Source: an uncultured Caryophanales bacterium
GTDB lineage: Bacteria > Bacillota_I > Bacilli_A > RF39 > UBA660
Length of the DNA: 35,920 nucleotides
Direction of reading: 5' to 3'
Assembly (NCBI GenBank): GCA_949948745.1
Contig: CATLHA010000013.1
Location: 1-35,920 of the forward strand
Shown here: one piece after another, positions 10,733 through 33,306 of the stretch
Numbering within the stretch: the stretch's first letter is position 1
Layout of the letters: every line of letters begins with the position of its first letter
Notes under the pieces: generated by a model
What the model saw: the letters and a program-made list of their open reading frames with translations, nothing else
Database searches by the model: none
Told to the model about the DNA's origin: nothing
Made by a program: the position numbers and the translations under genes

Positions 10733-10742
10733 GATTATCTAT

Positions 10743-10817: not shown

Positions 10818-10829
10818 ATAACAATGTTA

Positions 10830-10991: not shown

Positions 10992-11020
10992 TTGATAAAA
11001 ACTTTGTTTTTTGATATTAT
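10992..11020 (+). promoter_or_regulatory. Sigma-A-like promoter of gltX
   Basis: TTGATA (10992-10997), 17-nt spacer, TATTAT (11015-11020). The stretch 10859-10991 before it is AT-rich and holds nothing I can identify. Confidence 0.65.
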
Positions 11021-11048
11021 ATGTTTATGTTTAAAGGGTGTGATTTAT

Positions 11049-12704: not shown

Positions 12705-12730
12705 GAAGGAACTCCTTCTTTTTTCTTTTC
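12703..12730 (+). terminator. Rho-independent terminator of gltX
   Basis: AAGAAGG (12703-12709), AACT loop, CCTTCTT (12714-12720), then TTTTCTTTTC. It overlaps the gltX stop codon. Confidence 0.8.
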
Positions 12731-12745
12731 TAGCAAAAAAACTTA

Positions 12746-12754
12746 TGTTATAAT
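12746..12754 (+). promoter_or_regulatory. Extended -10 promoter of the metallopeptidase-like gene
   Basis: TG (12746-12747), one base, TATAAT (12749-12754); the -35 is poor. The ribosome site GGTGGTG precedes ATG 12787. Confidence 0.55.
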
Positions 12755-12786
12755 AGAAAACAGTTTAATCATTTGGTGGTGTACAT

Positions 12787-14181
12787 ATGGATAGAATTAG
12801 AGAAAAAATTGATGAGGTTACGAAGATGCAGATTTCTTGGCTTGAGGAGTTTTTGTATTTTTTAGGTTTTTTAGAAGAATATACAGATGAATCTAATATT
12901 GAACAGATATTAGGTGATAATGTTTTTTCTAATCCACAATATAAAGAAGTTATAAACCTTATTTCTCTTAGCTGTCCAGAAGATTTATCAAAAGACAAAG
13001 TGAAATTGTTTGAGAATGGTAGTTTTGAAGAAAAGTTGAATGTTTTTAGAACGGCATGTGATATTATGTTACGTGATCTTGGGGAAGATGCAATTAATCA
13101 TACCTATGCAGAACTAATTAATGATTTGCAAGATTTAGAGCCATTTGCATATGCTCAAGTTGAACCATTAAATCATATATTAGGTTGTCATTTACCTAAG
13201 TTCTCTAATCCTATTATATTTAATGAAGAAACTTTATTAAGTGGTCCTCGTATATCAATAGAAGATCTTTTAAAGCTAGTATCTGATTTTTTTGATTATA
13301 TGGATTCTACTGGTGATTTTTCGGAAAGGTTTTTCAAAATGTTAGAAGAAAAACGTATTGTTATGTGGAATTCTTTAGAGGAACCTCCAATTTCTGTTAT
13401 TGATCGTTTTGGTATTCCTGGATTTGAAGAGTGGAGTATTTGTACCTATGAAGATGGAAAACAATATATTAATGCGCCACTTACTGGAACATTAAAGGAT
13501 GCTTTTTTCTTGTCTCATGAAGTTACACATAGTATTTTTAGACAAAATGATGATACAGAGGCTTATTTCTTAAGTGAATTTTTTCCTATTTTAACTGAGT
13601 ACTTTCTTTATGATTATTTAGTTCAGTGTGGTTATTCATCAGAAGAATTGGATAAAGTATATGTTTTTAGAGCTTATGAAGAGCGAGAATTAATGATTTC
13701 TGTATCTAAAATTATTTCTTTAATGGATAAAAAAATAAATGGAGAAAGAATTATTGAGGAGGACTTTATCCAAAACTATACGAAAGAGGAGTTATTAGAA
13801 AAAACAAAAGGAAAAGTTTCTCTTGATGAAATTGGGGATTTTGATAAATTTGTAGAAGAAACAAATAGTATATTATTAGATACAGGGAGTCATTTATTAA
13901 AATATCAAATTAGTAGTTTAAATGTAGATGATTTTATAGAAGAATATGTATACATTTTCGCTAAGTTGTTTTCTAGAGATCTTTATACTCAATCAAAGGA
14001 TAAAAAGGTTTTATTTGCTAAAGTAAGATTCCTTATTTCTGTGATAGCTAATTCTGAGATGTCTTTTTGTTATTATTTAGGCTACTTAGAACTTTGGAAT
14101 TATTATTTTATGTTTAATAAAAATTTTGATCAATATACGTTTCCACCAAGAATTGAGGATAAGCAAATGATAAAAAAATAG
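12787..14181 (+). CDS. Putative zinc metallopeptidase with HEXXH motif (M3-like)
   Basis: A 464-residue cytosolic, helix-rich protein. It contains HEVTH at 244-248 (His244, Glu245, His248) in a hydrophobic helix, and 27 residues after the first His a Glu271 in ILTEYF. The same spacing class (28-29) gives the third zinc ligand in M3 peptidases such as PepF and thimet oligopeptidase, and the helical character also fits. It is shorter than PepF (about 600 residues) and shares little else by eye. I infer a gluzincin-type metallopeptidase; substrate and partners are unknown. The promoter has an extended -10 and the gene ends in a strong bidirectional terminator shared with the convergent gene at 14207. 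Confidence 0.7.
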   Translation: MDRIREKIDEVTKMQISWLEEFLYFLGFLEEYTDESNIEQILGDNVFSNPQYKEVINLISLSCPEDLSKDKVKLFENGSFEEKLNVFRTACDIMLRDLGEDAINHTYAELINDLQDLEPFAYAQVEPLNHILGCHLPKFSNPIIFNEETLLSGPRISIEDLLKLVSDFFDYMDSTGDFSERFFKMLEEKRIVMWNSLEEPPISVIDRFGIPGFEEWSICTYEDGKQYINAPLTGTLKDAFFLSHEVTHSIFRQNDDTEAYFLSEFFPILTEYFLYDYLVQCGYSSEELDKVYVFRAYEERELMISVSKIISLMDKKINGERIIEEDFIQNYTKEELLEKTKGKVSLDEIGDFDKFVEETNSILLDTGSHLLKYQISSLNVDDFIEEYVYIFAKLFSRDLYTQSKDKKVLFAKVRFLISVIANSEMSFCYYLGYLELWNYYFMFNKNFDQYTFPPRIEDKQMIKK

Positions 14182-14204
14182 TACACGAAAGTGTACTATT
14201 TTTT
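14173..14204. terminator. Bidirectional terminator between convergent genes
   Basis: A perfect 14-bp stem, AAAAAATAGTACAC (14173-14186) with GTGTACTATTTTTT (14191-14204), with a GAAA tetraloop. It has A and T runs on both sides, so it works for both the + gene ending at 14181 and the minus gene ending at 14207. Confidence 0.9.
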
Positions 14205-14206
14205 GC

Positions 14207-14710
14207 TTATTTTATAAAATACTTAGTAATTGTTGATTTTCCGATTTCTCTTTTTGTTGTTTGATTATAGAAGGCTTCTAAATTAAAACATTTTTCTAAT
14301 TCTTCTGGTTTTGTTGATGTTGTATATAAAGATACCATTCTTGAAGAATCTTTATAATAGAAATCTTTTCCTTTTATTTCAAAGAATAAATCTTTTCCGC
14401 ATCGTTTTTCGAATTTTATTTCAAAGTCTTTTATGGTATTTTCTTCCCAAATGCCATCGTTACAAACAGAAATATGAAGTTTACCGATATCTCCTTTATG
14501 TTCTTTTCCAATTAAATCATCAATGCTTTTTATTTCAGTTAAATCAATTTTAATATCAACAGCGCCATATATTATACTTTCCTTTACTAGGGAAGGGAAG
14601 AACTCACTAGTAATGTTTATTGTGATATAGCTTTGATTATTATAATTTCTTTGCCTAAAATTTGTTTCTGAGAATTTGATATCAAATTCATAATTATTAA
14701 TTTTTAACAT
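14207..14710 (-). CDS. Small beta-rich protein of unknown function
   Basis: A 167-residue cytosolic protein with alternating beta-like segments (IKINNYEFDIKF-type N-terminus, SYITINITSEF, GKLHISVCNDGIW, DLFFEIKGKDFYY) and no signal peptide or catalytic motif that I recognise. The pattern suggests a beta sandwich or barrel. A GGTGATG ribosome site precedes the ATG at 14710. It is transcribed divergently from the TasA-like secretion cluster and convergently with the metallopeptidase gene. The function is unknown. Confidence 0.65.
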   Translation of the reverse strand: MLKINNYEFDIKFSETNFRQRNYNNQSYITINITSEFFPSLVKESIIYGAVDIKIDLTEIKSIDDLIGKEHKGDIGKLHISVCNDGIWEENTIKDFEIKFEKRCGKDLFFEIKGKDFYYKDSSRMVSLYTTSTKPEELEKCFNLEAFYNQTTKREIGKSTITKYFIK

Positions 14711-14731
14711 TTTTTCATCACCATAGGCTAT

Positions 14732-14760
14732 ATTCTATCACATTTTTAGATATATTTCAT
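14732..14760 (-). promoter_or_regulatory. Minus-strand promoter of the 14710 gene
   Basis: On the minus strand: ATGAAA (14760-14755), 17-nt spacer, TAGAAT (14737-14732) with a TG extension. Confidence 0.5.
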
Positions 14761-14793
14761 ACTTTTCAATAAAAATTATGTCGAAAAAATATA

Positions 14794-14843
14794 AGTTTAC
14801 TTATAGTTTACTCTTGAAATTTACCTGGGGGAGAGGTTATAAT
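14794..14843 (+). promoter_or_regulatory. Promoter of the TasA-like cluster with an upstream 8-bp direct repeat
   Basis: TTGAAA (14814-14819), 18-nt spacer, TATAAT (14838-14843). AGTTTACT occurs twice (14794-14801 and 14805-14812), 11 bases apart and touching the -35 region, as expected for a regulator bound on one face of the helix (inference). Two Shine-Dalgarno-like sites (14855-14860 and 14863-14868) precede ATG 14869. Confidence 0.65.
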
Positions 14844-19927: not shown

Positions 19928-20488
19928 TTATCTAGTTCTTATGTATTCTTTAATATTAGATGGATCAATTTGTATTTTTTTCTCTATATCAACAAATGGA
20001 AAGTATGTATTCGTATCTTTCATTACATATAAGAAAAAATCTATGTATTGATTTCTTCCAATGTAATAATTTCCTCGTTTACTAGGAATTTTAATTCCTA
20101 ATACCTTATTTATAGAAATTGGTTTTCTTGTTTGATATTCATCTTTCCAATTAGAAAATCTAATTGGTAAAAACATTCTTAATAATTGTGTATTTGAAAA
20201 TAAATTGTTAGATTCCATGTGATGTGTTTTGATAGTCGAAATATTATCTATAATAAATGCATATTGATCCCTGATAAAATAGTTATAACTACTATCATAT
20301 AATGTGTCTGTTTTTTTCGCTAAGGAAATATAGAAGGGACCATTTGCTGTTTCTATATCTATTTCACTGAATGGTTTTATTTGTATTGGTGGTTTAATTT
20401 TACCACTTGTAATAATCTCCTTAAAATTTTCTGTATTAGCCTGATGAAAAAGCCAATTTTTATTTATTTCTATGTTTGTAATTCTCAT
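19928..20488 (-). CDS. Unknown protein with weak ADP-ribosyltransferase-like features
   Basis: A 186-residue cytosolic protein. The N-terminal WLFHQANTENFKEIITSGKI (His15) recalls the H-x-T-x-x-N-x-x-I-x-x-x-G pattern of ART-fold proteins. GPFYISLAKKTD (Tyr53, Ser55) could be the second conserved strand, and WKDEYQTRKPISINKVLGI (Glu117) resembles the acidic strand 'E..i....I.gi'. These three positions would make an H-Y-E type active site, but I recognise no named family and the resemblance is by eye. A RES or DarT-like toxin, or an unrelated fold, remains possible; no antitoxin gene is next to it. An AGGAG ribosome site and extended -10 promoter support the start. It is divergent from 20595. 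Confidence 0.6.
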   Translation of the reverse strand: MRITNIEINKNWLFHQANTENFKEIITSGKIKPPIQIKPFSEIDIETANGPFYISLAKKTDTLYDSSYNYFIRDQYAFIIDNISTIKTHHMESNNLFSNTQLLRMFLPIRFSNWKDEYQTRKPISINKVLGIKIPSKRGNYYIGRNQYIDFFLYVMKDTNTYFPFVDIEKKIQIDPSNIKEYIRTR

Positions 20489-20594: not shown

Positions 20595-21251
20595 ATGGAA
20601 GATACTTTATTTTATTTGAACTTAAAGAAGAATCCCCAGAAAATTGAAATTTTTCAGAATGCTTTTGAGCAAGGATTAATTCAATTTTTTGATCCAGATG
20701 TATTAACAAAACTTAGAAAAATGTACTATGGATGTTATTCTGGTTTATTATATTTATATACAATGCCGACAGATTCTTCTTCTATTGGTTCTAAATTAGA
20801 AATTCTATCTCATGTTTTTTCTGACTTAAATTATGTGATTGTTCATGGACATACTGATTCTACTCGTGAAATTTGTTTTTCTGACTATAACAGTAGTCCT
20901 TTGGATTATAATTCTTGGATTGAAGTGGCTAGTGGATTAAAAATCTGGGTATATGATGTATTTTCTATGTTAAAATTTGAGAGAGATACTTATTATCAAT
21001 TAGAAAATCCTTTTATTACAAAAAAAGTTCCTTTTGCTGTTATTCGTAGTTTTCCTGAATATTATGATACTGATTTTTCTCATTTGAGGGATCCTTTTAT
21101 TTTGATTAGTTTAATGAGGGATATTGAGCGTAATGTAAAATTAAGCCCTTATAGGAGTTTTTTAGAGGCGGAACTTGAAAAGTTTAAAATTGTAAATCAC
21201 TATCAAGATATTTTATTACAATGGGAAAAAGAAAAAAAGATGATAAAATAA
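20595..21251 (+). CDS. Unknown protein, possibly transglutaminase-like without the catalytic His
   Basis: A 218-residue cytosolic protein with no signal peptide. Residues 42-57 (KMYYGCYSGLLYLYTM, Cys47) and 103-121 (LDYNSWIEVASGLKIWVYD) resemble the cysteine and the H-x-W-x-E...Y-D strands of transglutaminase-like cysteine enzymes. Here the expected His position is Asn106, followed by SW, with Asp121 in VYD. If related, it would lack a full Cys-His-Asp triad. The similarity is by eye and weak; no function is assigned. It is divergent from the 20488 gene and convergent with the LRR gene, sharing a terminator. Confidence 0.6.
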   Translation: MEDTLFYLNLKKNPQKIEIFQNAFEQGLIQFFDPDVLTKLRKMYYGCYSGLLYLYTMPTDSSSIGSKLEILSHVFSDLNYVIVHGHTDSTREICFSDYNSSPLDYNSWIEVASGLKIWVYDVFSMLKFERDTYYQLENPFITKKVPFAVIRSFPEYYDTDFSHLRDPFILISLMRDIERNVKLSPYRSFLEAELEKFKIVNHYQDILLQWEKEKKMIK

Positions 21252-21274
21252 AAAGAGCTTAGGCTCTTTTTATT
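21251..21274. terminator. Bidirectional terminator between convergent genes
   Basis: AAAAGAGC (21251-21258), TTAG loop, GCTCTTTT (21263-21270), with T residues on both strands. The stop codon of the minus-strand LRR gene lies across the loop (21261-21259). The hairpin core equals the terminator at 3806. Confidence 0.85.
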
Positions 21275-24258
21275 AAGATTGGAATTTGTCCTTCACTGTT
21301 ATCTCCACTATATGTACCAACCATATTGTTTCCTAGTTGATAACTGTAATTAGCATAATCTGGTATTGTTATATTTGGCATTTCTTCCATAGTATTATCT
21401 CTATTCATATATTTCTTTAAGACATTTCCATGTCTTCCAATGGAAACATTTTGAAGTGTTTTTTCTTTGTTGTTTTCATTATATTTTTGAACAAATGCTT
21501 TGGTTCCTCTCATAAATGCTTCATAAATTTCTTGAAAATCGTTATCTTCTTTAATTTCTAAGCTAACTTCTGCTGTATTAAAACTTGCACTTTGTTCTTC
21601 TTTATTTACCCATATCGTCATTTTCGCAATAATTCTATCTTCTTTATTTCTAATTGCTAAATTTTGACAATTATTAAGAATCATACTGGCTCTCATAATT
21701 CCAGCTCCAGCTCCATTGATATGAGCGCAACAATTACAATATTTTCCAAGAATTAAATTATCCCATGATTGTTTTGGTAGCCATTCGTAATGAAAATTAT
21801 TTTCATTTGATTCTCTTAAATCATCTTTTTCATCTAGTTTACTTGTAAAAATATTTCTAGGAGCATTTTTAGATTCTCTTAAAATTTTACATGCAATATC
21901 TACAACTTCTCTTTCTGAATAATATTTTGCGAGTAATTTTGCTAATTCTTCATTTTCCTTTGTAATTCCGTTAAAATTTTGCATTAAGAAAAATGTTTTA
22001 CATTTATCGATGGTAACTTTTAAATGTCTTTGTCTACCTTTGTTTGATGTAGAACACTTAGAAATTTCTTCAAAACAATTATAAACACTGGCAATAAATC
22101 CAGAATCCTTCTTTTCAGTTTCAATTAATTCTTTATAATTTTCAATGAAAAAAATGATGAATTCTTTATTTATTTCATTTTTTGGTCTTAGGGTATCAAA
22201 AATTCTGTGAATATTATTTCCAACTACTTGGTATTCATTTTTATTCCCTATAGAATTTGTTTCTTCAAATAGTTTTTCTGTAATGAAAGTAGATACCTTT
22301 TGGCTTAATTGTTCATTATCATTAAATACCCCTAATATCATCATCAATTTTAACAAATCCTTTAAATTACAATCTTTGTAATCTTGTGTTTCTAAAACAC
22401 CACTTTTTTGAATTAGTCTTTTTAAGTTTTTATTATAATGACTTAGTATTAATTCTATTTCTTCTGGTGTTAGGTTTACATAGAATTTTGTGTTATATAA
22501 AAATCTATCGTATAATTTATACTTTTCTAACAGGTTACAATAAGTTGTTATTTTGTGGATATTTTTTAATAGTTTTTCTAAATTTACTGTTTCATTTAAT
22601 ACTTTTTTTGGATCAGAAAATCCATGATACTTTAAAAAATTTTGAAGAGAAGGGGACATGTTCTGAATGATATTTAGTACTTCTTGGTGATTTAATTTTC
22701 TCATTATAATTCCATTAAATAATAGTTCATCATCAATATGATTTACTTTTAATAGTTCTCTTATTATTTTATTATTTTTCTTTTTTGCAATTTGCTCTAC
22801 ATAATCCATATCAGAAGCGAATTTATCAAATATCTTTACTAATTCTTGATTTGTTAATCCACTAGCAAATATATCATGATATGTTGCATTTATTGAAAGT
22901 AGGGAATATATATAATCAATAAATCTATCAGGGTCATTTTCTAGGAGACTACTACCATTTGATATTTTACTAATTTCTTCTTTTGTAATACTAACTATAT
23001 CATAATCATCAATTTTAACATAATAGGTTCCATTTTTTAATGAGAAAATTTTAATATTATCCTTTTGCATCATATTCTCAAAATAATCTTCTGATGTTTT
23101 TGTTTCTAGCATGTCAAATTCATTTCCTAAAATACTACCAAAAATTTCAAAATCAAGTGTAATATCCGTAGTAAAATTTTTTGGCGCTACCATTTTTAAA
23201 GATGCAGGAAGGTGTAAATATTTTAAATCTTTAGATTCTGTAAAAACCTGATTTCCAATATGTTCTAAGGTGTTAGGTAATCGGATACTTTTTACATTTT
23301 TGAAGAGACTACTCATGTTATCACCAATTGTTGTAATACCATCTTCCAAGAAAATATTTTCAAATGGTGAATAAGTTTCCTCTTTTAGTTTTCCATAGGT
23401 TTGAATTAACAAAACTTTTCCATAGTATGTAAAATATACAACTAGGTTTTTTAGTTGATTACAATTATAAAATGTCTTTTTTCCGATACTTTCTATTTCT
23501 GATGGAATTTCAATTGTTTCTAGATTATTGGCATCCATAAATGCATATTCCCCAATATTATAGATTAAATGAGAAGATTTTACTCCATTATCATATTCTA
23601 TTTCATAATATCCAATCGTAAATTCTTTTTTCTTAGATGCAGGGGCATATTGTATAAATATTCCATCTTTTTTGTTAATTATAGCTATATCTTCTATACT
23701 AAGGTATTTCTTATTATTATCATCTACTGTAATTTTAGATAGGCTAGACATATGTGCTAGTGCACCTAAATCTATAGTATCTAAATTTTGGGGAATATGA
23801 ATTTCTTTGATACTTTGGCATCCATATAGAGATTTTATACCTAGTGCTTGTATTTTTTTTGGTAAAGTGAAATTTGTTAAATTTGTACAATTATATAAGC
23901 CTAAATCATTAATATACATAATTTCGTCATGACAGTTTATGGTTTTTAAGTTTTGGCAATTTTTGAAAACTCCAGTATCTATATAATGAAGGGATTCTGG
24001 TATTGTTACTTCTTCAAGAGATATACAATTTTCAAAAGCATATGCTTCTAATAATTCTAGATTTTTTGAAAGTTTTATTTTTTTAAGATTTTTACAATTA
24101 CGAAAAGCACCTTGTTTAATAATCACAACGGTATCTGGAATGATTACTTCCTCTAGATTTTCAAAATCTTGAAATTGTTCTGACAAAATAGTTGTTGTTC
24201 CTTCAGGAATTTTGATTATTTTATCTTCCTTATTGTATTCTATTCCTTCCTTACTCAT
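21259..24258 (-). CDS. Intracellular LRR_5 (BspA-type) protein, 999 residues, with C-terminal CxCCxH domain
   Basis: The start is the ATG at 24258, with AGGAG nine bases upstream; it overlaps the TGA of the preceding gene as ATGA. The protein has no signal peptide or membrane segment. Residues about 18-185 and 235-375 are LRR_5 repeats of roughly 23 residues (AF.NC..L..I.IP). A helical region (about 420-800) follows, then a domain at about 820-960 with CNCCAH (Cys841, Cys843, Cys844, His846), GAGIMRASMI and NVSIGRHGN. From about 630 onward it is clearly homologous to the 24255-28157 product (SxSNKGxQRxLKVT, NAPRNIFT, YEWLPKQ). The C-terminal domain is unknown to me; the strand/helix order recalls GNAT folds (weak). 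Likely a partner of the MoxR-VWA operon across the divergent promoter. Confidence 0.85.
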   Translation of the reverse strand: MSKEGIEYNKEDKIIKIPEGTTTILSEQFQDFENLEEVIIPDTVVIIKQGAFRNCKNLKKIKLSKNLELLEAYAFENCISLEEVTIPESLHYIDTGVFKNCQNLKTINCHDEIMYINDLGLYNCTNLTNFTLPKKIQALGIKSLYGCQSIKEIHIPQNLDTIDLGALAHMSSLSKITVDDNNKKYLSIEDIAIINKKDGIFIQYAPASKKKEFTIGYYEIEYDNGVKSSHLIYNIGEYAFMDANNLETIEIPSEIESIGKKTFYNCNQLKNLVVYFTYYGKVLLIQTYGKLKEETYSPFENIFLEDGITTIGDNMSSLFKNVKSIRLPNTLEHIGNQVFTESKDLKYLHLPASLKMVAPKNFTTDITLDFEIFGSILGNEFDMLETKTSEDYFENMMQKDNIKIFSLKNGTYYVKIDDYDIVSITKEEISKISNGSSLLENDPDRFIDYIYSLLSINATYHDIFASGLTNQELVKIFDKFASDMDYVEQIAKKKNNKIIRELLKVNHIDDELLFNGIIMRKLNHQEVLNIIQNMSPSLQNFLKYHGFSDPKKVLNETVNLEKLLKNIHKITTYCNLLEKYKLYDRFLYNTKFYVNLTPEEIELILSHYNKNLKRLIQKSGVLETQDYKDCNLKDLLKLMMILGVFNDNEQLSQKVSTFITEKLFEETNSIGNKNEYQVVGNNIHRIFDTLRPKNEINKEFIIFFIENYKELIETEKKDSGFIASVYNCFEEISKCSTSNKGRQRHLKVTIDKCKTFFLMQNFNGITKENEELAKLLAKYYSEREVVDIACKILRESKNAPRNIFTSKLDEKDDLRESNENNFHYEWLPKQSWDNLILGKYCNCCAHINGAGAGIMRASMILNNCQNLAIRNKEDRIIAKMTIWVNKEEQSASFNTAEVSLEIKEDNDFQEIYEAFMRGTKAFVQKYNENNKEKTLQNVSIGRHGNVLKKYMNRDNTMEEMPNITIPDYANYSYQLGNNMVGTYSGDNSEGQIPILIKRA

Positions 24259-27200
24259 TTTCTTTCTCCTATTGTTTTTACTACTAATCTTTGTTTTGTT
24301 CTCCAATCTCCATTATATCCATGATATGAATCAAGTGCATAAGAGCCAAAGTGTAATGATTCTTGAACTTCTACTATAGGGTGATTATCATCGTCTAAGT
24401 AATCTATAATTTTATTTCTGTTTGCTCCAATAGAAATATTAGATAGTGGATTTTCTGGATTATTTTCATTGTATGTTTTAAAGAAAGCTTCTGCTCCTCT
24501 CATAAAAGCATGATAGATATTCTCTTTATCTTTTTCACTAGAATAATTTAAGGAACCTTCTACATTATTGAATACAGCATACTTTTCTACTTTGTTTACA
24601 TATATCGTAGCCTTTGCGATAATTTCACCAAATCCATTTCTAATAACTAGATTTTGACAATTATCTAGAATCATACTAGCTCTCATAATTCCTTGACCAG
24701 CTCCATTAATATGAGCACAACAGCTACAATATTTTCCTAAAATTAAGTTTTCATATGCTTGTTTTGGTAACCATTCATAAGAATAATTTTCATTATTTTC
24801 TTCTTTTAAATCTAAATCAGGATCATTATCATATATTGGTTTATTTTTCTTGTTATATTCTACTTTTGTAAAGATATTTCTAGGTGCATTTAAGGATTCA
24901 TTGTATACTTTTAATGCATTTATCCAATCTTCGTTTCGATCATACCATTGTCCAATTAAATTAGCTAATTGTCTATTTTTCTCGATATTATCAAATTTAA
25001 CTGTTAGAAGATAATCCAAACATTTTTTCATAGTTACTTTTAATTTTCTTTGGGAACCCTTATTTGAAGTGGAAGTTTTTGAAATACCTCTGAAATTTAT
25101 ATAAATTCTTTGAGTAATACCTGAAAATACTTTTTCATTTTCTATTAATTCTTTAAAATTTTCTAAGAAAAATTGAGCAAATTCTTGATCAAATTCATCT
25201 CTTGTTTCAATATTAAAGACTCTATGAATATCATCTCCAATAATTCTTGTAGAGTTTACATTTCCATTATCTAATTTTTTAGCAAATATTTTTTCTGTAA
25301 TCAGTGTTGTTGCTTTTTGACTTAAAATAGGGTCATTAGATAAAGCACCAGAAATGAATAGAAGGGTTAATAAGTCATTCATATTTATGACTAATGAAGA
25401 ATCATTTTCAAGAATTTTACTTTCTTTTAATAATCTCTTTGTATTCGCATTATATGTTTTAAAAAAGTCATCAGCTAGAGGATTATCTACAATAGTAATG
25501 AAAGCTTTATTCAATAAAAAAGAATCTTTTATATTGTTTTTTCTTATGTGTTTTATAAAATATTTCAATTTATTGTCAGTTAAAATATTTTCTATGATAG
25601 AAGAATTCTCACTATTTACATTTTCTAATAACTTATGTAGAGTTTGGGTTAGTAGTGGACAATCTAATTCATATAATTCTTTTAAATCATCTATATCATA
25701 GTAAGCTAATAAATATCTATTATAAAATATTTTGTCTTCTATGTTTTTTTCTTTTATAAAGTTTACGTAGTCAATTACCTTTTCAAAAGAATTAATTTCT
25801 AATATTTTTTTTGTAGTATTATCGTCATTTTCTAAAATACCGCTATCTGTTAGAACTTTTAGATAAGTATCATCTTCTTTATCCAATGAATCTAGTAATA
25901 TTTCTCTATTTTCTAATGAGATATTTTTCATTAAGATGCCATTTAATAATTTCTTTATTACCAAATCATGATTTACTAAGTCGTTCATAAAATCTAGAAA
26001 TAGAACTGGATTATCTCTAACTAGTTTTGAATTTGTGCACTTATCATCAATATAGTCTTTGTTGATGGTAGTTATTTTTCCACTTTGTTCAATATGATAA
26101 GTTCCATCCTTTAGTGTATATATTCTATAGGGTAATTTGTAACAACTTATTGTATCCAAATTATCTAAGTTATCTAAAGTTAATCCGCTTTTAAATTTTA
26201 ATTTTGTCGATTTAGGAAAAGCTTCAGATTCTATTCTATATACAGATTCAGGTATTTCTACTTCTTGTAATTCTATACAATCAAGAAAAGCACCACTACT
26301 TATATAATAACTATTTTCATCTTCTAAATTTAATTTTTTAACTTTTCTAAATTCTTGTAGTGCGTTCATAGATATGTTTACTAAGTTTCCTGTGAAAGTT
26401 ATTTCTTCAAATGGAACACTTATTTTTTTTCTTTTATCTTCTTTAAATATCATCCATCCGTTTTCTTCGACATGGATTACAGGACAACTACAAAATGAAA
26501 TTCCTTCTAAATTTAATTTTTTTAAATTATCACAACCTTCAAATGTATTAAATTCTATAGAACGTGTGCAACCACATAGGGTTAATTCTTCTAGATTTTT
26601 GGCATTAGAAAAGGCATGAGGAGCTAATCTTCTAATTGGTCTTATGCATTCTGTTCCATCATCTAATATTGTTAAGTTATAATCCTTTAGTGAATAATAT
26701 TTATCTTTATTTCCAACTGCATATAAAATAACTGCTTCCTGAAGAAGTTGGATTAAGATTTTATGATCATGTGTTGTATAAAATTTATTATTTTCATCTA
26801 CATCAATTCTTTTTAAAGAATCCATTCTATAAAATGCATCATTTCCAATTGTTTTTAATTCTCTTGGAATCGTAATTTCTTCTAGGCTACTACAACCTGA
26901 AAATGCTTCTTTATTAATTGTAGTTACACACATTGGTATTTCAATATCTACTAAACTTGTACAATTATAGAAAGCTCTGGTTCCAATTCTATTGATGAAT
27001 GGGCTTATTTTTATTTTTTTTAAGGCTTTACAATTACTAAATGCTTCTGCTGGGATATCAACAATGACATTTCGAAGATTTATTTCACTTAATTTACTAC
27101 AGCCAGAAAAAGCAAAACTTTCTAATGTTTTTATTGCTTCTTGGTGATTTATAGTTGTTAAATTTTTACATCCTCTAAAGCATTTAGATGGAATATTATA

Positions 27201-28157
27201 ATCGACAATATTAATTTCTGTAAGAGATTCACAACTTTCAAAAGCAGAGTCATTATATTTTGTAACAAAAGATGGTACTTCTCTTAAGCTTTTACAATTT
27301 TTAAAACACTTTTTTCCGATAGAAATTGGTTTATTATTTATTGAAGTGATTTTTTGTAAATTGATACATTCTTCAAATGCTTCTTCTGGAAGTTCATTGA
27401 TATTTGGTCCTAATTCTATTTCTTTTAGACTTTTACAATTCTTAAAACATCCAGTACCTAATTTTTCTATATGTTTTGGAAACGTTCTTAGGTTTCTACA
27501 ACCTTCAAATGTATATTGCCCTAATTCTTTAATATTTTTATTTAAAGTAATATCTAATTTTTCACATCCAGAAAACAATTGATCTGGAAGAGAGGTTAAA
27601 TGATTTGGTAATGTAACTCTTTTTAGATTTTTACAATTCATGAAAATTTGCTTATTTAATACTCTAACACTATTTGGGATGACAATTTCTTCTAAGGCTT
27701 GACAATCCGTAAACGCAGCCCAATCAATTTCTTCGATACCATCTTCTAATATTATTTTTTTAAGTCTTTTACAATTGGCAAAAGCTCTATAATTTATTTT
27801 TTTAACACCTTTTGGGATAGTGATTTCTTCTAGATTTTCACAACCACAAAAGGCACTATTTCCAATATAGGTTAAATTTTTAGGAAGAATTATTTTTTTA
27901 AGATTTTTATTGGATGCAAAGGCACGTTCTTTAATTGCAGAAAGTGATTCTGGTAAAACGATTTCTTCTACACCTTCAGATTGATAAAATGCATAATCTT
28001 CGATTACAGATACTCCTTCAGGAATGACTACTTTTTTAGATTTTAGATTATGACAAGCATAATTTCCAATTATTTTAATTCCTGTTGGGATATTTAAAAT
28101 CTCACTAGTATAATCTTTTTCATTTAAATCAATTAATTTTTCATTTTGTATTTTCAT
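24255..28157 (-). CDS. Giant intracellular LRR_5 (BspA-type) protein, 1300 residues, with C-terminal CxCCxH domain
   Basis: First gene of the minus-strand pair. The ribosome site AGGGGGAAG and a TTGATT/TATAAT promoter fix the start. There is no signal peptide, unlike surface BspA proteins. About 20 LRR_5 repeats fill residues 20-455, and more lie at 505-655. A helical part (700-1090) precedes the C-terminal domain (about 1125-1290), with CSCCAH (Cys1144, Cys1146, Cys1147, His1149), GQGIMRASMI and NISIGANRN. It shares the whole rear half with the downstream gene, so the pair arose by duplication, with the LRR array longer here. BspA-type repeats bind proteins; the cytosolic location suggests a scaffold or recognition role. 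Coupling to the next gene is by ATGA. Confidence 0.87.
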   Translation of the reverse strand: MKIQNEKLIDLNEKDYTSEILNIPTGIKIIGNYACHNLKSKKVVIPEGVSVIEDYAFYQSEGVEEIVLPESLSAIKERAFASNKNLKKIILPKNLTYIGNSAFCGCENLEEITIPKGVKKINYRAFANCKRLKKIILEDGIEEIDWAAFTDCQALEEIVIPNSVRVLNKQIFMNCKNLKRVTLPNHLTSLPDQLFSGCEKLDITLNKNIKELGQYTFEGCRNLRTFPKHIEKLGTGCFKNCKSLKEIELGPNINELPEEAFEECINLQKITSINNKPISIGKKCFKNCKSLREVPSFVTKYNDSAFESCESLTEINIVDYNIPSKCFRGCKNLTTINHQEAIKTLESFAFSGCSKLSEINLRNVIVDIPAEAFSNCKALKKIKISPFINRIGTRAFYNCTSLVDIEIPMCVTTINKEAFSGCSSLEEITIPRELKTIGNDAFYRMDSLKRIDVDENNKFYTTHDHKILIQLLQEAVILYAVGNKDKYYSLKDYNLTILDDGTECIRPIRRLAPHAFSNAKNLEELTLCGCTRSIEFNTFEGCDNLKKLNLEGISFCSCPVIHVEENGWMIFKEDKRKKISVPFEEITFTGNLVNISMNALQEFRKVKKLNLEDENSYYISSGAFLDCIELQEVEIPESVYRIESEAFPKSTKLKFKSGLTLDNLDNLDTISCYKLPYRIYTLKDGTYHIEQSGKITTINKDYIDDKCTNSKLVRDNPVLFLDFMNDLVNHDLVIKKLLNGILMKNISLENREILLDSLDKEDDTYLKVLTDSGILENDDNTTKKILEINSFEKVIDYVNFIKEKNIEDKIFYNRYLLAYYDIDDLKELYELDCPLLTQTLHKLLENVNSENSSIIENILTDNKLKYFIKHIRKNNIKDSFLLNKAFITIVDNPLADDFFKTYNANTKRLLKESKILENDSSLVINMNDLLTLLFISGALSNDPILSQKATTLITEKIFAKKLDNGNVNSTRIIGDDIHRVFNIETRDEFDQEFAQFFLENFKELIENEKVFSGITQRIYINFRGISKTSTSNKGSQRKLKVTMKKCLDYLLTVKFDNIEKNRQLANLIGQWYDRNEDWINALKVYNESLNAPRNIFTKVEYNKKNKPIYDNDPDLDLKEENNENYSYEWLPKQAYENLILGKYCSCCAHINGAGQGIMRASMILDNCQNLVIRNGFGEIIAKATIYVNKVEKYAVFNNVEGSLNYSSEKDKENIYHAFMRGAEAFFKTYNENNPENPLSNISIGANRNKIIDYLDDDNHPIVEVQESLHFGSYALDSYHGYNGDWRTKQRLVVKTIGERK

Positions 28158-28184
28158 AAATTGCTTCCCCCTAAGTAGTAATAT

Positions 28185-28212
28185 ATTATATATATATTTA
28201 TTTAAAAATCAA
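28185..28212 (-). promoter_or_regulatory. Minus-strand promoter of the LRR gene pair
   Basis: On the minus strand: TTGATT (28212-28207), 16-nt spacer, TATAAT (28190-28185). It faces away from the plus-strand promoter at 28251. Confidence 0.7.
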
Positions 28213-28230
28213 TGACTATAGGTATTTTAG

Positions 28231-28250
28231 TGTATATTTATGTATATTTA
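28231..28250 (+). repeat. 10-bp tandem direct repeat beside the divergent promoter
   Basis: TGTATATTTA occurs twice without a gap (28231-28240, 28241-28250) and abuts the -35 box of the plus promoter. The spacing of about one helical turn suits a dimeric or cooperative regulator (inference). Confidence 0.7.
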
Positions 28251-28279
28251 TTGAAACTTAAATTTTTCCATGTTAGTAT
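28251..28279 (+). promoter_or_regulatory. Promoter of the duplicated-domain/VWA/MoxR/ankyrin operon
   Basis: TTGAAA (28251-28256), 17-nt spacer, TAGTAT (28274-28279), ribosome site GGAGG (28291-28295), ATG 28303. Confidence 0.75.
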
Positions 28280-28302
28280 ATTAAATTACAGGAGGTTATG
28301 CT

Positions 28303-29001
28303 ATGTTGTACAATGAAGGTAGAGTAGAAAATCCTATTTGTATTAAGATTCAAAAAAATGAGAAAATATTATTATTTGGTGAATCTGGTGAGATTATTTA
28401 TCCTTTAGATCCAGGTATCGCTTTAGGAAAAGGTCATTTTGGATTTACTTTGATTGTTGAAAAGAATAGTTTACAAGAAGAGAAAGTGTATCCAACTGAA
28501 TCCGATATTAGTGCTGCTTATATGTATAATGGTGAAATTAAAATTTATGAAAATGGAAAAAAATTTCCTTGGATTTTTAGTATAGATGGAAAAGTTATTC
28601 GTTCTATTACAGGTGATTTTATTTCTAATGGGAATGATGAAGACGAAATTGAAGAAGAAAGCGATTATCCAGTTATGAGAAATCCAATTACGATTGATAT
28701 AGAAAAAGGTGTTTCTAAAGGAAAAATTATTATTAATAATGAGAGTTTTCCTGTACATCCAGGAGTTATGTTAGGAAGAGTACACTATGGGTTTATTGTT
28801 AGGATGAAATCCAGTGATGATGTAAAAATATTCTCGTATCCTACTAAAAATCGAATTGATGCTGTAGGATCTGATATGGTTGGAGAATCAGTTAAAGTCT
28901 ATGAATTTGGGAAAAAAATTCCATATATTGTAGATGAATCATTTCATAGTACAAATTTAGAAAATAGCGTACCTATTGATGATAAAGTTAAAAAAATTTA
29001 G
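28303..29001 (+). CDS. Protein with an internally duplicated unknown domain, first gene of the MoxR-VWA operon
   Basis: A 232-residue cytosolic protein made of two copies of a domain of about 84 residues: residues 9-92 and 126-210. They match in NPI.I.I, HPG or DPG followed by LG..H.GF, YPT...I.A and K(I/V)YE.GKK.P.I. An acidic linker (about 103-122) joins them. I recognise no named family; the spacing of short strands suggests a small beta domain. As first gene of the operon it may be an adaptor for the AAA+ or VWA protein (inference). The VWA gene follows after 12 bases. Confidence 0.75.
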   Translation: MLYNEGRVENPICIKIQKNEKILLFGESGEIIYPLDPGIALGKGHFGFTLIVEKNSLQEEKVYPTESDISAAYMYNGEIKIYENGKKFPWIFSIDGKVIRSITGDFISNGNDEDEIEEESDYPVMRNPITIDIEKGVSKGKIIINNESFPVHPGVMLGRVHYGFIVRMKSSDDVKIFSYPTKNRIDAVGSDMVGESVKVYEFGKKIPYIVDESFHSTNLENSVPIDDKVKKI

Positions 29002-29013
29002 AGTGTGAGTATT

Positions 29014-30735
29014 ATGAGAATTTGGAAATATGTAGCTACAAAAATAAGTAATTCAGATCAAAACCAGGATAGTAGTTTGAATGATGACCAAAGTGAAAAT
29101 CAATTGGATGAAAATTCTGGTGATGAAGAAAATAGTTCTGATACAGAAGGTGTAGGAAATGATTATGATAGTGGGCAAGATTCTGGTAACGAAGACGATT
29201 CTAATTTAGAAGAAGATTCTAAAGGGAATGGTTCCGATAGTCAGGAATCTTCTGATATGGAAAATGATATGAATGATTCTAATAGTGGGCAAGATTCTGG
29301 TAACGAAGACGATTCTAATTTAGAAGAAGATTCTAAAGAAAATGATTTTGATAAGCAGGAATCTTCTGATATGGAAAGTGATGAGAATGATTCTAATAGT
29401 GGGCAAGATTTTGGTAACGAAGACGATTCTAATTTAGAAGAAGATTCTAAAGGGAATGGTTCCGATAGTCAGGAATCTAGTTCTGATATGGGAAATGATA
29501 TGAATGATTCTAATAGTGGACAGGGTTCTAGTAATGAGGCTGATTCTAATTTAGAAGAAGATTCTAAAGGGAATGGTTCCGATAGTCAGAAATCTAGTTC
29601 TGATATGGAAAGTCAAAATAGTGAGCAAAATTCTCATAATGTGAATGGTTCTAATAGTCAAGAGATTAGTCTAGAAATAGAAAATCCGGATGCTGACTCT
29701 AATAATGAACAAGGGTTAGATCAAGAAACTGATTTAAACTCTCAAAAAGAAGAATTACGGGCTATGAAGAATATGCTTGAAGAAATGATTGAACAAGAAG
29801 ATCAATTAGCAGAAGAAAATACTTCAGAATATACAGATGATTATTCCAATCAATTTTTGAAAAGATTAGAAGAAATACCATCTTTTGAGCAAAGACAAAC
29901 GAGTGATGGTTATTCTATAGATACACAGAGTAATACAGAAATACCTGATAGTTTGGTTCGTACTTTAATTACTAAATTTTTAAATCAAAGATTTTGTATA
30001 CGAACTACTGATTTAAATGTTCGTAGTAATTCTTTAGAAAAAAGTTATGGCTTTTATAAATGGAATGTAAAAGATGTTATTGTAGATTCTAAAACACACC
30101 AATTAAATAAAGTTTTGCATGATAAATATGGATATGATTATGCAGATGGTAAAAATGAAAATGTTCCTTTATCTTTTTATTTTGATATGTCTAGTAGTAT
30201 GAGTAAATATACAAATATGCTCGCTGTTATATCGATTGAACTGTTAAAAAAGGGAGTTAAAGTATTAATTGGTTTTAATTCTAAAGTAAATGTACAAATT
30301 GATAGTATTGCTTCTAATATAGATGTTTCTGATCTTGTTTCTTTTTTGAAAAAAGCAGGGGAATCCGATGCTTCATTTAGTACTAACTATATAAAGCAAA
30401 AAAAGGATCAATTTACTTTTAAAACAATAAAAAGAGAATTAGATACATATCTAATTGATAAACGTGCTGAAAAGTGTGTTATATTTTCTGATTTTGATCC
30501 AAGAATTAAAGTTATTAATTTATCAAATCATTCTCAAGTATATTGGTTTTGCTTTGAAAAAAATTTTAGTTTATCTAGTTTATCTACTTATGGTAAAAAA
30601 TTCCAAGGTTTTCTTTATCCAGTACAAAATCAAGAAGATTTAGCACTTGGTTTAGTGAAAATAAATGAAAAACGATTTGAAGCATTATGTTATGTTGATA
30701 ATATAAAAGTATTACAAAAGGAGTATTCAAAATGA
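29014..30735 (+). CDS. VWA-domain protein with a long acidic Ser/Asp repeat region
   Basis: About 573 residues. The first 200 are low-complexity, rich in Asp, Glu, Ser and Asn, and include four copies of a 38-residue unit (core SNLEEDSKGNGSDSQESS). A helical stretch (about 240-290) follows. The C-terminal VWA domain starts near 385 with the MIDAS motif DMSSSMS (Asp391, Ser393, Ser395), and IFSDFDP gives a later acidic strand. VWA proteins with MIDAS bind a metal-dependent partner and typically pair with MoxR ATPases, as ViaA does with RavA. The ATG at 29014 is preferred; an in-frame GTG at 29005 is possible. The end overlaps the AAA+ gene as ATGA, which supports joint function. Confidence 0.85.
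   Translation: MRIWKYVATKISNSDQNQDSSLNDDQSENQLDENSGDEENSSDTEGVGNDYDSGQDSGNEDDSNLEEDSKGNGSDSQESSDMENDMNDSNSGQDSGNEDDSNLEEDSKENDFDKQESSDMESDENDSNSGQDFGNEDDSNLEEDSKGNGSDSQESSSDMGNDMNDSNSGQGSSNEADSNLEEDSKGNGSDSQKSSSDMESQNSEQNSHNVNGSNSQEISLEIENPDADSNNEQGLDQETDLNSQKEELRAMKNMLEEMIEQEDQLAEENTSEYTDDYSNQFLKRLEEIPSFEQRQTSDGYSIDTQSNTEIPDSLVRTLITKFLNQRFCIRTTDLNVRSNSLEKSYGFYKWNVKDVIVDSKTHQLNKVLHDKYGYDYADGKNENVPLSFYFDMSSSMSKYTNMLAVISIELLKKGVKVLIGFNSKVNVQIDSIASNIDVSDLVSFLKKAGESDASFSTNYIKQKKDQFTFKTIKRELDTYLIDKRAEKCVIFSDFDPRIKVINLSNHSQVYWFCFEKNFSLSSLSTYGKKFQGFLYPVQNQEDLALGLVKINEKRFEALCYVDNIKVLQKEYSK
29171..29625 (+). repeat. Four 114-bp tandem repeats inside the VWA gene
   Basis: Copies starting at 29171, 29285, 29399 and 29516 (spacing 114, 114 and 117 bases, in frame) are near-identical at DNA level; the core AATTTAGAAGAAGATTCTAA is unchanged in all four. 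The extra codon in the last interval adds one Ser. High DNA identity implies recent expansion by slippage or recombination. Confidence 0.85.
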
Positions 30736-32564
30736 AAATAGAAAAAGAAAAAATAAAAGAATTGTTTGAACAAAAGGGGTATTATATTTCAGACTATCTT
30801 TTATCTAAAACTTGTTTAGGTTTATATTATATTAGTGAGGGACAATCTGTTGGACAAGAAGTATTTTCTATGTGTTTAGATGGTCCAAGTGGAGCAGGAA
30901 AAACCTTCTTTGTAGAAACCTATTGTAAAGCCGCATCTGATATTTTAGGAAAAAAAGTGAAGTTTATTAATTTTCAATTAGATGCAGAAACTGGTAAAGG
31001 TGATTTATACGAAGATATCGATGTTGTCGCTACATTTGAAGGAGATACTAGTAAAATTAGAATTCCTGGTAAAATTATAGAAGCTTTTCAAGCAGTCAAT
31101 GATGGAAATTATGTCATCTTAAAAATGGATGAGTATGATAAAGCTAGAGATGTTACTGATACTTTCTTTAATAACTGTTTACAAGAAGGATTGATTAATA
31201 CAGTACAACATGGAAATATTGAAATTAAGCCAGAAAATCGTGGAATGTTACAAGTGTTTTTATGTAAAAATGATATTCGTGCTGAACTGTCAGAGCCAAT
31301 GATGCGTCGTAATAGAATTGTTCGTCTTGATTATATGCCACCAGAACGTTTATTTTTAATATTGAATAAGTTTGTGGAACAACAAAAATGCAGCAATGGA
31401 TTATTAAATCTAGTCACTTTAATTTATGAACAATTATATAATGATCGTGATATGTATCAAAAACTACCTTCTTGTTCAGAATGTGAACAAGCAATTATGG
31501 ATGCTCATATTTTAATGAAAATTGGTAATTTTACACAAAATGATATTTATACTAATATTATTGAGGATATGCTTAAAATGTCTGATGATATTAAAACATT
31601 TGAATCTAGAACTAATGCTTCTAGTTCAGAAAACAGTAAGAAATTAGCAAATCTGATTAAAGATATGAAGAATGAAGAATCAAATCAAACTCCCCCAAGT
31701 ATTAATAATTTAATTGCTAAAAATATATTTGATGATCAGATTAAAGAATTACAATTAAAAACAGATCAGATGCAGAAATTAATTGATGAATATAAGATAA
31801 AATTTGCAGAATTAGAACAGCAAAAAATTTCAGAAATGGAAGAAGAAAAGAAAAAAATACAATTGGAAAATGGAAATTTAGTACCTTCTTTAGATATTCC
31901 AAATATTATTAAAAATTTTGAAGATGATTCTGTTTTTGTAAAACGTGGATATAATATTTTTGATATTTCAAAAACAGAATGGACAGATGTTGGATTTGTT
32001 CAGATTCCTAGATTATCTCATCATATTTATATTACAAAATTGATGGAATTTGCGAGTGAACTTGGAATTAAAATTTATGAAAATGGTGTTTTAATTCAAG
32101 ATACTGGTGAACAAAAACTAATTGTAATTAATGATTTAGATGAACAGGGTGTTCCTAGATTTCGATTTATGTCTAACTATCCAGTGATTCCAGCCACTTA
32201 TTTACAGGATATGATTAATTTTATTAAATTCGGTTTAAAAGCTTTAGAATATCAAAAAAAGATTTGTGAACAAGTAGTAGATCAGGCTGTGAAAACGAAG
32301 GATCAATTAACTCAAGAATATGGACTTAATGAGAATGATTCTCTTACTTATTCTATTGATGCATTAGCTTATAGTGATACAATATTAGATTTTAAACAGG
32401 AAAGAGAAAATGTTTATTGTTTAAATGTTTTAGGTATGATTAATACTTTAAGTGAACTTGAAAGATTATCTTCTACTTGTAGTTGTGTTGATTCTAATAT
32501 GGTACTTCAGGTTTCTAAAGATATTATGAATGGTAAAGGAAAAGTGTTGAATTATGAACAATAA
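30732..32564 (+). CDS. MoxR-like AAA+ ATPase with C-terminal extension
   Basis: A 610-residue cytosolic AAA+ protein. Walker A is GPSGAGKT (51-58), Walker B VILKMDE (128-134), a sensor-1-like Asn lies near 180 (LCKN), and an arginine-finger candidate is in MMRRNRIV (about 191-198). This is the MoxR type, which forms hexamers and remodels proteins, usually with a VWA partner. After a lid region (to about 320), a coiled coil (about 335-380) and a further domain of about 200 residues (400-610) of unknown fold extend it well beyond the 300-330 residues of plain MoxR. It overlaps the VWA gene by 4 bases and the ankyrin gene by 11, so all are translated together. Confidence 0.88.
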   Translation: MKIEKEKIKELFEQKGYYISDYLLSKTCLGLYYISEGQSVGQEVFSMCLDGPSGAGKTFFVETYCKAASDILGKKVKFINFQLDAETGKGDLYEDIDVVATFEGDTSKIRIPGKIIEAFQAVNDGNYVILKMDEYDKARDVTDTFFNNCLQEGLINTVQHGNIEIKPENRGMLQVFLCKNDIRAELSEPMMRRNRIVRLDYMPPERLFLILNKFVEQQKCSNGLLNLVTLIYEQLYNDRDMYQKLPSCSECEQAIMDAHILMKIGNFTQNDIYTNIIEDMLKMSDDIKTFESRTNASSSENSKKLANLIKDMKNEESNQTPPSINNLIAKNIFDDQIKELQLKTDQMQKLIDEYKIKFAELEQQKISEMEEEKKKIQLENGNLVPSLDIPNIIKNFEDDSVFVKRGYNIFDISKTEWTDVGFVQIPRLSHHIYITKLMEFASELGIKIYENGVLIQDTGEQKLIVINDLDEQGVPRFRFMSNYPVIPATYLQDMINFIKFGLKALEYQKKICEQVVDQAVKTKDQLTQEYGLNENDSLTYSIDALAYSDTILDFKQERENVYCLNVLGMINTLSELERLSSTCSCVDSNMVLQVSKDIMNGKGKVLNYEQ

Positions 32565-33306
32565 AGATTTAGATGTTTTAATAGAAGAAGGAGAAAAGAT
32601 TTTAAAAGAAAATGGCTTGGATAAAGATAGTATTAATCAATATCGTAGTGGAATAAAACAAATCTCTATAGAAGAAAGCAATGAATTGGGAAAACAACTA
32701 TTTGAAATTATTTCACAAAAAGATTATAGAGATGACACTAGTAAAATTGAACAACTTTTGTTAGATGGTGCGAATCCTAACTATCAGGATACAGCAAAAG
32801 GAGAATTTTGTTTAAGAAGGTGTGCTAGAAAGAAATATGTTAAAACTTTTATTCTTTTATTAAAGGCTGGTGCAAATATCAATTTGGCAAATAATTTTGG
32901 TACAACTTCAATTATTACAGCTGCACGATTTGGTAGTGATAAAATATTAGATATTGGCATTCATATGGGTGGTGATGTCAATGCTAGACCATTAGATGGA
33001 GATACTGCAATTATGGGAGCTAAAAATCATTCTAATATTAAATGTTTTGATTTATTAGCAGCAAGTCATGCTCATTTAAATACTACAAATCTATCTAATA
33101 AAACAATTTTTGATAGTTCCAGCGATTCTTCTTTTTTTGAAAGAAGTACTTATTCAACAGAACTTTTAGAACAGAGTTTAGATACAGAAGAAGATTCCTT
33201 ATTGGAAAAAAAGTTGATGGAAGAAGCAATTGAGAAAATGACTAGAATAATTGAAGATGTAGATATGATAAAACCTCCAAAACAAATGATAAAAATAGAT
33301 AATTAA
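32554..33306 (+). CDS. Ankyrin-repeat protein
   Basis: A 250-residue cytosolic protein. About three ankyrin repeats lie at residues 60-175, with typical fragments: IEQLLLDGANPNYQD, FILLLKAGANINLANNFGTTSIITAARFG and GGDVNARPLDGDTAIMGAK. Flanking parts are helical and acidic. Ankyrin repeats bind other proteins; here the gene is last in the operon and starts within the end of the MoxR gene (11-base overlap). This suggests a specificity or recognition subunit for the ATPase complex, parallel to the LRR proteins on the other side of the promoter (inference). Confidence 0.87.
   Translation: MNNKDLDVLIEEGEKILKENGLDKDSINQYRSGIKQISIEESNELGKQLFEIISQKDYRDDTSKIEQLLLDGANPNYQDTAKGEFCLRRCARKKYVKTFILLLKAGANINLANNFGTTSIITAARFGSDKILDIGIHMGGDVNARPLDGDTAIMGAKNHSNIKCFDLLAASHAHLNTTNLSNKTIFDSSSDSSFFERSTYSTELLEQSLDTEEDSLLEKKLMEEAIEKMTRIIEDVDMIKPPKQMIKIDN

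What the first reader, a model, noticed from the sequence alone, without database searches (positions are those of the whole stretch)
21259..33306. Divergent locus pairing intracellular LRR proteins with a MoxR-VWA-ankyrin operon: candidate undescribed system
The sequence shows two giant LRR_5 proteins without signal peptides (minus strand, ATGA-coupled) and, across a 145-base divergent promoter, an operon for a duplicated-domain protein, a VWA protein, a MoxR-like AAA+ ATPase and an ankyrin protein, with 4- and 11-base overlaps. MoxR plus VWA pairs (for example RavA-ViaA) are known chaperone-like modules, and vWA-MoxR ternary systems have been proposed as conflict systems. The combination with protein-binding repeats on both sides and a shared novel C-terminal domain is not one I know. 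I infer a regulated protein-remodelling or recognition complex, possibly for defence or a surface or ribosomal target.
Basis: partly seen in the sequence, partly recalled or inferred. Interest (0 to 1): 0.85.

Follow-up and report, generated by a model that had tools for sequence, protein, structure and literature searches.

The report
AAA-vWA-ankyrin operon with LRR-acyltransferase partners
This gut bacterium carries a conserved cluster in which a molecular motor and its adaptors sit back-to-back with giant intracellular leucine-rich-repeat proteins ending in an acyltransferase-like domain; it is probably a protein recognition-and-remodelling machine, possibly for defence, but its function is untested.

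Summary
Coordinates, overlaps, the 145-base divergent gap and the shared LRR C-terminus all check out. The layout is not a one-off: LRR genes face a [P5]-vWA-AAA+-ankyrin operon in 7 of 10 distinct relatives where it can be tested, in mostly different surroundings; the 3 exceptions are one genus. LRR C-terminus and AAA+ co-occur in 5 of 6 LRR-positive genomes of 193 (p about 3.5e-7). The invariant core is vWA-AAA+-ankyrin; the LRR proteins are the usual partner, and one relative fuses LRR to ankyrin. The LRR C-terminus, unknown to Pfam, is predicted to be a GNAT (Gcn5-like) fold with invariant Cys, His, Arg and Glu but no canonical acetyl-CoA loop. The vWA protein has a conserved N-terminal peptide, a long acidic linker and a C-terminal MIDAS-bearing domain, like NorD. 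Two near relatives share a nearly identical motor but a swapped-looking LRR segment. I read it as a NorQD/RavA-like remodelling motor serving LRR-GNAT and ankyrin recognition proteins: a new variant related to vWA-MoxR 'ternary' systems, not a VMAP member. Defence is plausible but unshown; a ribosomal role suggested by neighbouring rbfA is not supported.

The parts
21259..24258 (-). LRR-B, 999 aa intracellular protein: LRR_5 repeats (about 24216-23167), helical middle, C-terminal GNAT-like domain
   Evidence: ORF; Pfam LRR_5 2e-63; ATGA start; GNAT fold
21262..21786 (-). GNAT-like domain of LRR-B, C-x-[CS]-C-A-H motif at 21738-21721
24255..28157 (-). LRR-A, 1300 aa: LRR_5 repeats (about 28037-26196), helical middle, GNAT-like C-terminus
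   Evidence: Pfam LRR_5 4e-116
24258..24776 (-). GNAT-like domain of LRR-A, CSCCAH motif at 24728-24711
28158..28302 (.). 145-base A+T-rich divergent intergenic region; promoter-like matches on both strands and a GGAGG ribosome site before P5
   Evidence: promoter-like count in the region not above shuffles
28303..29001 (+). P5, 232 aa, two related all-beta halves; present in 5 loci, absent in 3 of the LRR loci
   Evidence: no family match; no confident fold match
29014..30735 (+). vWA protein: conserved N-terminal peptide MRIWKYV, D/E/S/N-rich linker of about 240 aa, C-terminal vWA-like domain
30184..30198 (+). MIDAS DxSxS motif (DMSSS)
   Evidence: invariant D and S in 11 of 11 relatives; coordinates
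30732..32564 (+). MoxR/midasin-like AAA+ ATPase, 610 aa: AAA domain, coiled coil, C-terminal domain
   Evidence: paralogue AAA2 best PDB match Midasin
30882..30905 (+). Walker A GPSGAGKT
31113..31145 (+). Walker B VILKMDEYDKA
32554..33306 (+). ankyrin-repeat protein, 250 aa, 11-base overlap with the AAA+ gene
   Evidence: Pfam Ank 3.8e-9, Ank_2 2.4e-8; found with the AAA+ gene in relatives

Best explanation
The locus encodes an ATP-driven protein-remodelling machine. The AAA+ protein is expected to form a MoxR/midasin-type ring. The C-terminal vWA domain plugs the ring and grips a partner through its MIDAS metal site, while the conserved N-terminal peptide anchors the far end of a long acidic linker; ATP turnover twists and stretches the partner, as shown for NorQD. 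The partners are the ankyrin protein, encoded next to the motor, and the divergent LRR proteins, whose LRR arrays recognise a protein and whose C-terminal GNAT-like domain acts as an acyl- or aminoacyl-transferase-type effector. I think it most likely works as an accessory recognition-and-response module (conflict type), with the motor keeping LRR-GNAT proteins off or releasing them when the target is bound. Shown: gene content, conserved layout, motifs, predicted GNAT fold, patchy distribution, excess divergence of the LRR segment in one pair. Inferred: the complex, MIDAS binding to LRR or ankyrin, enzymatic activity, the defence role.
For: Same divergent layout in G190, L063, G114, L059, L061 and L062/L065 besides the window. 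LRR C-term and AAA+ co-occur in 5 of 6 LRR-positive genomes out of 193. AAA+ tree: 7 of 7 testable members of the window's clade have the LRR genes, and a member of another clade (G114) too. An internally deleted remnant in G186 keeps both ends together. LRR-ankyrin fusion directly after AAA+ in G081. Ankyrin genes doubled or more in G190, G025 and L061. vWA DxSxS and AAA+ Walker motifs invariant or nearly so; NorD-like order of anchor, disordered linker and vWA (PMC13036017, PMC9976466). GNAT fold of the LRR C-terminus (Z about 10). Accessory nature: AAA+ in 9 of 193 family genomes, the site between rbfA and its usual upstream gene not shared with congeners. Recognition part diverges fastest: between G190 and L063 dS is 0.62 in the LRR, 0.27 in the GNAT domain, 0.07 in AAA+ and 0.06 in ankyrin.
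Against: No function, interaction or expression data. LRR genes are absent in one genus with the core operon. dN/dS of the LRR is about 0.2, so no positive selection is seen, and the excess dS rests on one pair. AAA+ and LRR-A distances do not correlate significantly (r 0.29, p 0.16). No catalogued defence genes among the ten flanking proteins scanned except PDC-S05 in one genus and one weak hit each elsewhere. GNAT domain lacks the canonical Q/RxxGxG loop, so it may be catalytically dead. The vWA assignment is motif-based; profile searches of Pfam and PDB give almost nothing.
Confidence: 0.42

Rival explanations
1. A dedicated maturation chaperone: the AAA+/vWA pair activates or repairs the LRR-GNAT enzymes (or a complex of them with the ankyrin protein) for an ordinary cellular job, as NorQD does for nitric oxide reductase or CbbQO for RuBisCO; no conflict role.
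For: The characterised MoxR/vWA pairs read about here serve specific clients (PMC9976466, PMC13036017). Purifying selection on every part (dN/dS about 0.2 for most). No defence-island context.
Against: Patchy presence (9 of 193), different genomic sites, variable copy number of ankyrin and LRR genes and excess divergence of the LRR segment fit an accessory recognition system better.
Confidence: 0.33
2. LRR-GNAT genes and the vWA-AAA+-ankyrin operon are independent accessory cassettes that share a hot spot or a divergent promoter.
For: LRR-GNAT relatives are abundant elsewhere (18 domain copies in this genome, about 9 in tandem on contig C11); the core operon occurs without them in one genus; G175 has an LRR-B homologue without the operon.
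Against: The LRRs at the operon form a distinct subfamily, with 5 of 6 carriers also having the AAA+ (p 3.5e-7), the same divergent orientation in mostly different surroundings, and an LRR-ankyrin fusion.
Confidence: 0.17
3. The module acts on the ribosome or its assembly, being encoded next to rbfA.
For: Adjacent to rbfA in the window and in L058; midasin, the nearest solved relative of the paralogous AAA2, is a ribosome assembly factor.
Against: Other loci are not next to rbfA; congeners have rbfA behind a 705-711 aa protein of infB length and no module; most of the family lacks it.
Confidence: 0.03

Closest known systems
vWA-MoxR 'ternary' conflict systems (VMAP, iSTAND and others; PMC7159879)
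   Same: MoxR-type AAA+ plus vWA protein with a further partner set, patchy distribution, repeat superstructure domains, and a GCN5-like acetyltransferase among the listed effector types
   Different: Partners are an ankyrin protein and divergent LRR-GNAT proteins; no VMAP or STAND component recognised; vWA is C-terminal with an N-terminal acidic linker rather than carrying C-terminal effectors; host is a small-genome gut Bacilli lineage
NorQ/NorD, RavA/ViaA, CbbQ/CbbO chaperone pairs
   Same: AAA+ and vWA encoded side by side; N-terminal anchor, disordered linker, C-terminal MIDAS vWA as in NorD (PMC13036017, PMC9976466)
   Different: No sequence relation demonstrated; anchor is a short peptide; extra ankyrin, P5 and LRR-GNAT genes; client unknown
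Midasin/Rea1
   Same: AAA_5-type ATPase, acidic linker, terminal MIDAS domain; best PDB match of paralogue AAA2
   Different: Two polypeptides in this bacterium instead of one giant chain
GNAT (Gcn5-like) acyltransferases
   Same: Predicted fold of the LRR C-terminus, Z 10.3 to yeast Gcn5 and GNAT hits throughout the list
   Different: No detectable sequence similarity to solved structures, no canonical acetyl-CoA loop; own invariant Cys/His/Arg/Glu set
PcfJ-like phage/plasmid proteins (PF14284)
   Same: Fold-level match of helical region plus GNAT-like domain: Lactobacillus phage LP65 Orf137 E 5.8e-4 and several PcfJ-like entries
   Different: No Pfam PcfJ match and no profile-profile similarity
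Microcystis phage MaMV-DC ORF68L
   Same: Carries the same CC...DN.E GNAT-like domain as the C59 paralogue (27% identity, E 2e-8)
   Different: No LRR annotated and no motor operon examined; uncharacterised phage protein

Membership tests
VMAP-type vWA-MoxR ternary system | MoxR-type AAA+ ATPase | tested here: inconclusive
   AAA_5 in 11 of 12 relatives, window just under cut-off; no MoxR-specific model matched
VMAP-type vWA-MoxR ternary system | vWA partner encoded next to the AAA+ | tested here: inconclusive
   Adjacent in every relative where the neighbour is on the contig; DxSxS invariant; Pfam vWA only in 1 of 11 at E 0.011
VMAP-type vWA-MoxR ternary system | third component VMAP protein | tested here: inconclusive
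   No locus protein matched a VMAP model in Pfam, NCBIfam or PADLOC scans; whether these libraries hold a VMAP-C model was not checked
VMAP-type vWA-MoxR ternary system | effector domains fused to the C-terminus of the vWA protein | tested here: not met
   vWA is the C-terminal domain; a low-complexity linker lies N-terminal
NorQ/NorD-like MoxR/vWA chaperone pair | anchor - disordered linker - C-terminal MIDAS vWA with a pore-inserting finger | tested here: inconclusive
   Anchor peptide, linker and MIDAS seen; finger not modelled
GNAT superfamily | GNAT fold | tested here: met
   Predicted beta-beta-beta-alpha-beta core, GNAT structures fill the Foldseek and VIA lists, Z up to 10.3; best Foldseek E-value only 5.7e-3
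GNAT superfamily | Q/RxxGxG/A acetyl-CoA loop | tested here: not met
   Absent in the conserved segment after strand 4
PcfJ family | PF14284 sequence signature | tested here: not met
   No Pfam hit up to E 10; hhalign against a 9-member phage PcfJ profile gives nothing
NLR/STAND immune receptors | NTPase domain fused to the LRR | tested here: not met
   Pfam finds only LRR families in LRR-A/B above cut-off; the middle region is all-helical in the model

The most novel reading that the evidence does not exclude
A previously undescribed bacterial intracellular immune-type system in which cytosolic LRR proteins with an atypical GNAT effector domain are controlled by a MoxR-vWA-ankyrin machine, and whose LRR alleles are exchanged between strains while the motor stays constant.
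Probability: 0.25. Interest if true: 0.85.

Novelty: new variant of a known kind. Interest (0 to 1): 0.6.

Why it matters
It links the MoxR-vWA remodelling machines, whose clients are mostly unknown, to a defined and testable set of partners, and it defines a domain family (the CC-type GNAT-like domain) that Pfam does not recognise. If the LRR-GNAT proteins are the clients, the locus gives a compact model for how an AAA+ twisting motor controls repeat-protein receptors; if it is defensive, it would be a bacterial LRR-based intracellular recognition system outside the STAND/NLR architecture.

Tried and rejected
Ribosome link through rbfA: rejected by synteny. Secreted or surface LRR (BspA/HupY-like): no signal peptide or membrane segment, NCBIfam HupY far below cut-off. 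PcfJ membership: suggested by viral fold search, rejected by Pfam and profile comparison. Carriage by phages, plasmids or viral contigs: none found in the searches made (AAA+ in phages and viral contigs; LRR C-term in viral contigs and phages; vWA in viral contigs and plasmids). Co-divergence (mirror tree) of AAA+ and LRR-A: not significant. Positive selection on LRR: not seen, dN/dS about 0.2. P5 fold: model pLDDT 69, best PDB matches are beta-propellers at TM about 0.25, uninformative. A formylglycine-enzyme-like (FGS/DUF6273) reading of the extra domain of the G025 ankyrin proteins: no Pfam support. Extra AAA2 operon as part of the same system: separate, different third gene. The helical middle of the LRR proteins was not searched alone, so its fold is not judged.
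Full report
Observation. LRR-A and LRR-B are strong LRR_5 proteins without signal peptide or membrane segment. P5 has two related beta-rich halves. The AAA+ protein has Walker A GPSGAGKT and Walker B VILKMDEYDKA; the vWA protein has DxSxS in its C-terminal part. Pfam itself sees AAA_5 only just below cut-off in the window and no vWA at all, but scanning relatives finds AAA_5 in 11 of 12 and one weak VWA_CoxE, and a paralogous AAA2 elsewhere in the genome has Midasin as best solved match. So 'MoxR/midasin-like AAA+ with a vWA-like partner' is a fair but not watertight label.

Conservation. Of 193 genomes of the bacterial family, 9 carry the AAA+ and 6 a close homologue of the LRR C-terminus; five genomes carry both, one as a remnant (hypergeometric p 3.5e-7). 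Fetching the neighbourhoods shows LRR genes on one strand facing [P5]-vWA-AAA+-ankyrin on the other in G190, L063, G114, L059, L061 and L062/L065. P5 is missing in G190, L063 and L061. Flanks mostly differ; only L058 (the same locus as G821) shares the rbfA-PrsW flank. In one genus (G195, G291, G368 testable) the operon has no LRR genes next to it. Wherever the downstream neighbour is on the contig, an ankyrin gene follows the AAA+ gene, except that in L061 two degenerate ankyrin-like genes come first and in G081 the next genes are LRR-ankyrin fusions. The AAA+ tree shows the window's clade carrying the LRR genes throughout where testable. Searches of order, class and phylum samples find the full-length AAA+ and the vWA family only in this family of bacteria, and the searches of phages, plasmids and viral contigs found none.

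Setting. In most congeners tested, rbfA follows a gene of infB length (705-711 aa), as in the usual nusA-infB-rbfA order (infB identity inferred from length and place); in the window and L058 the module sits directly upstream of rbfA instead. This marks an insertion or rearrangement and removes the reason to suspect a ribosomal role.

The LRR C-terminus. Across 12 relatives, W-L-P-K-Q ... C-x-[CS]-C-A-H ... G-x-G ... R ... Q-N-L ... F-N-x-x-E are invariant or nearly so. AlphaFold2 on LRR-B 425-1015 gives a helical region and a confident C-terminal alpha/beta domain. Foldseek returns GNAT enzymes throughout the list shown, though with modest E-values (best 5.7e-3); VIA-align gives Z 10.3 to Gcn5 over 149 residues, with GNAT proteins down the whole list. 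The usual acetyl-CoA loop is missing. A broader family shares only G, two Cys, Glu and Gly. It includes the tandem giant LRR proteins of contig C11 (hhalign E 1.1e-11), two non-LRR proteins of the same genome, and a Microcystis phage protein. It occurs in 33 of 145 family genomes, 18 copies in this one, and in a phylum sample only in members of this family. Viral structure search suggested PcfJ-like proteins, but sequence profiles do not support homology.

The vWA protein. Twelve of twelve relatives with an intact start begin with the pattern x-[FI]-W-[KRH]-[FY] next to a Met, so the window start is probably 29014. A linker of roughly 240-490 residues rich in Asp, Glu, Ser and Asn follows, then the most conserved stretch of the locus. 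This order of anchor, flexible linker and C-terminal MIDAS domain is that of NorD, where the vWA finger enters the AAA+ pore and ATP turnover twists it against the anchored N-terminus (PMC13036017, PMC9976466).

Evolution within a pair. Between G190 and L063 the AAA+ is 96% and the ankyrin 98% identical, but the LRR and neighbouring part of LRR-A is 70-78%, with dS 0.6 against 0.06-0.07; dN/dS stays near 0.2-0.3. Nucleotide identity drops to 76-85% in a block covering the LRR and adjacent helical region and recovers on both sides. This looks like allele exchange of the recognition part under functional constraint, but it is one pair.

Interpretation. The best-supported mechanism is a NorQD/midasin-like motor acting on recognition proteins. 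The conflict-system reading draws on patchiness, variable copy number of LRR and ankyrin genes, an LRR-ankyrin fusion, LRR block divergence and the analogy to vWA-MoxR ternary systems (PMC7159879). It lacks any functional evidence. The module is not filed as a VMAP system, since effectors are not fused to the vWA C-terminus and no VMAP protein was recognised.

Noticed in passing
L055 (G000:C10) 10019-14836; also L087, L088: A second AAA+/vWA pair in the same genome with a third gene encoding an HExxH-type (HEVRH) protein, 64-73% identical trios in two other genomes; acidic linker in VWA2 too.
   Followed up: partly
G000:C11 (L009, L010) and C5 (L011): About nine tandem giant intracellular LRR_5 proteins with the same GNAT-like domain plus a further conserved C-terminal extension (GEDWYLIYE...).
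   Followed up: partly
L134 (Microcystis phage MaMV-DC ORF68L): A cyanophage protein carries the same CC...DN.E GNAT-like domain, so the domain is not confined to gut Bacilli.
   Followed up: partly
L043 9490-11489 versus L063: Block of low nucleotide identity (76-85%) over the LRR region, flanked by mostly 87-99%: possible allele exchange.
   Followed up: yes
L051 (G186:C31) 2439-3034: Remnant with the AAA+ C-terminus directly abutting an LRR C-terminal fragment in the canonical orientation, as if the middle of the locus was deleted (or a misassembly).
   Followed up: no
L048 3894-6986: Two tandem ankyrin proteins with an extra about 290 aa C-terminal domain that matches no Pfam family.
   Followed up: partly
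L061 12325-16971: Six tandem 234-257 aa genes after the AAA+: two degenerate ankyrin-like, one clear ankyrin, then three related unknown proteins.
   Followed up: partly
L082 5594-6496 (also L083, L084): In the genus without LRR genes the neighbour of vWA is a PADLOC candidate defence protein (PDC-S05).
   Followed up: no
window 19928-20488 and 20595-21251: Two small genes next to the locus without recognisable families (186 and 218 aa).
   Followed up: no
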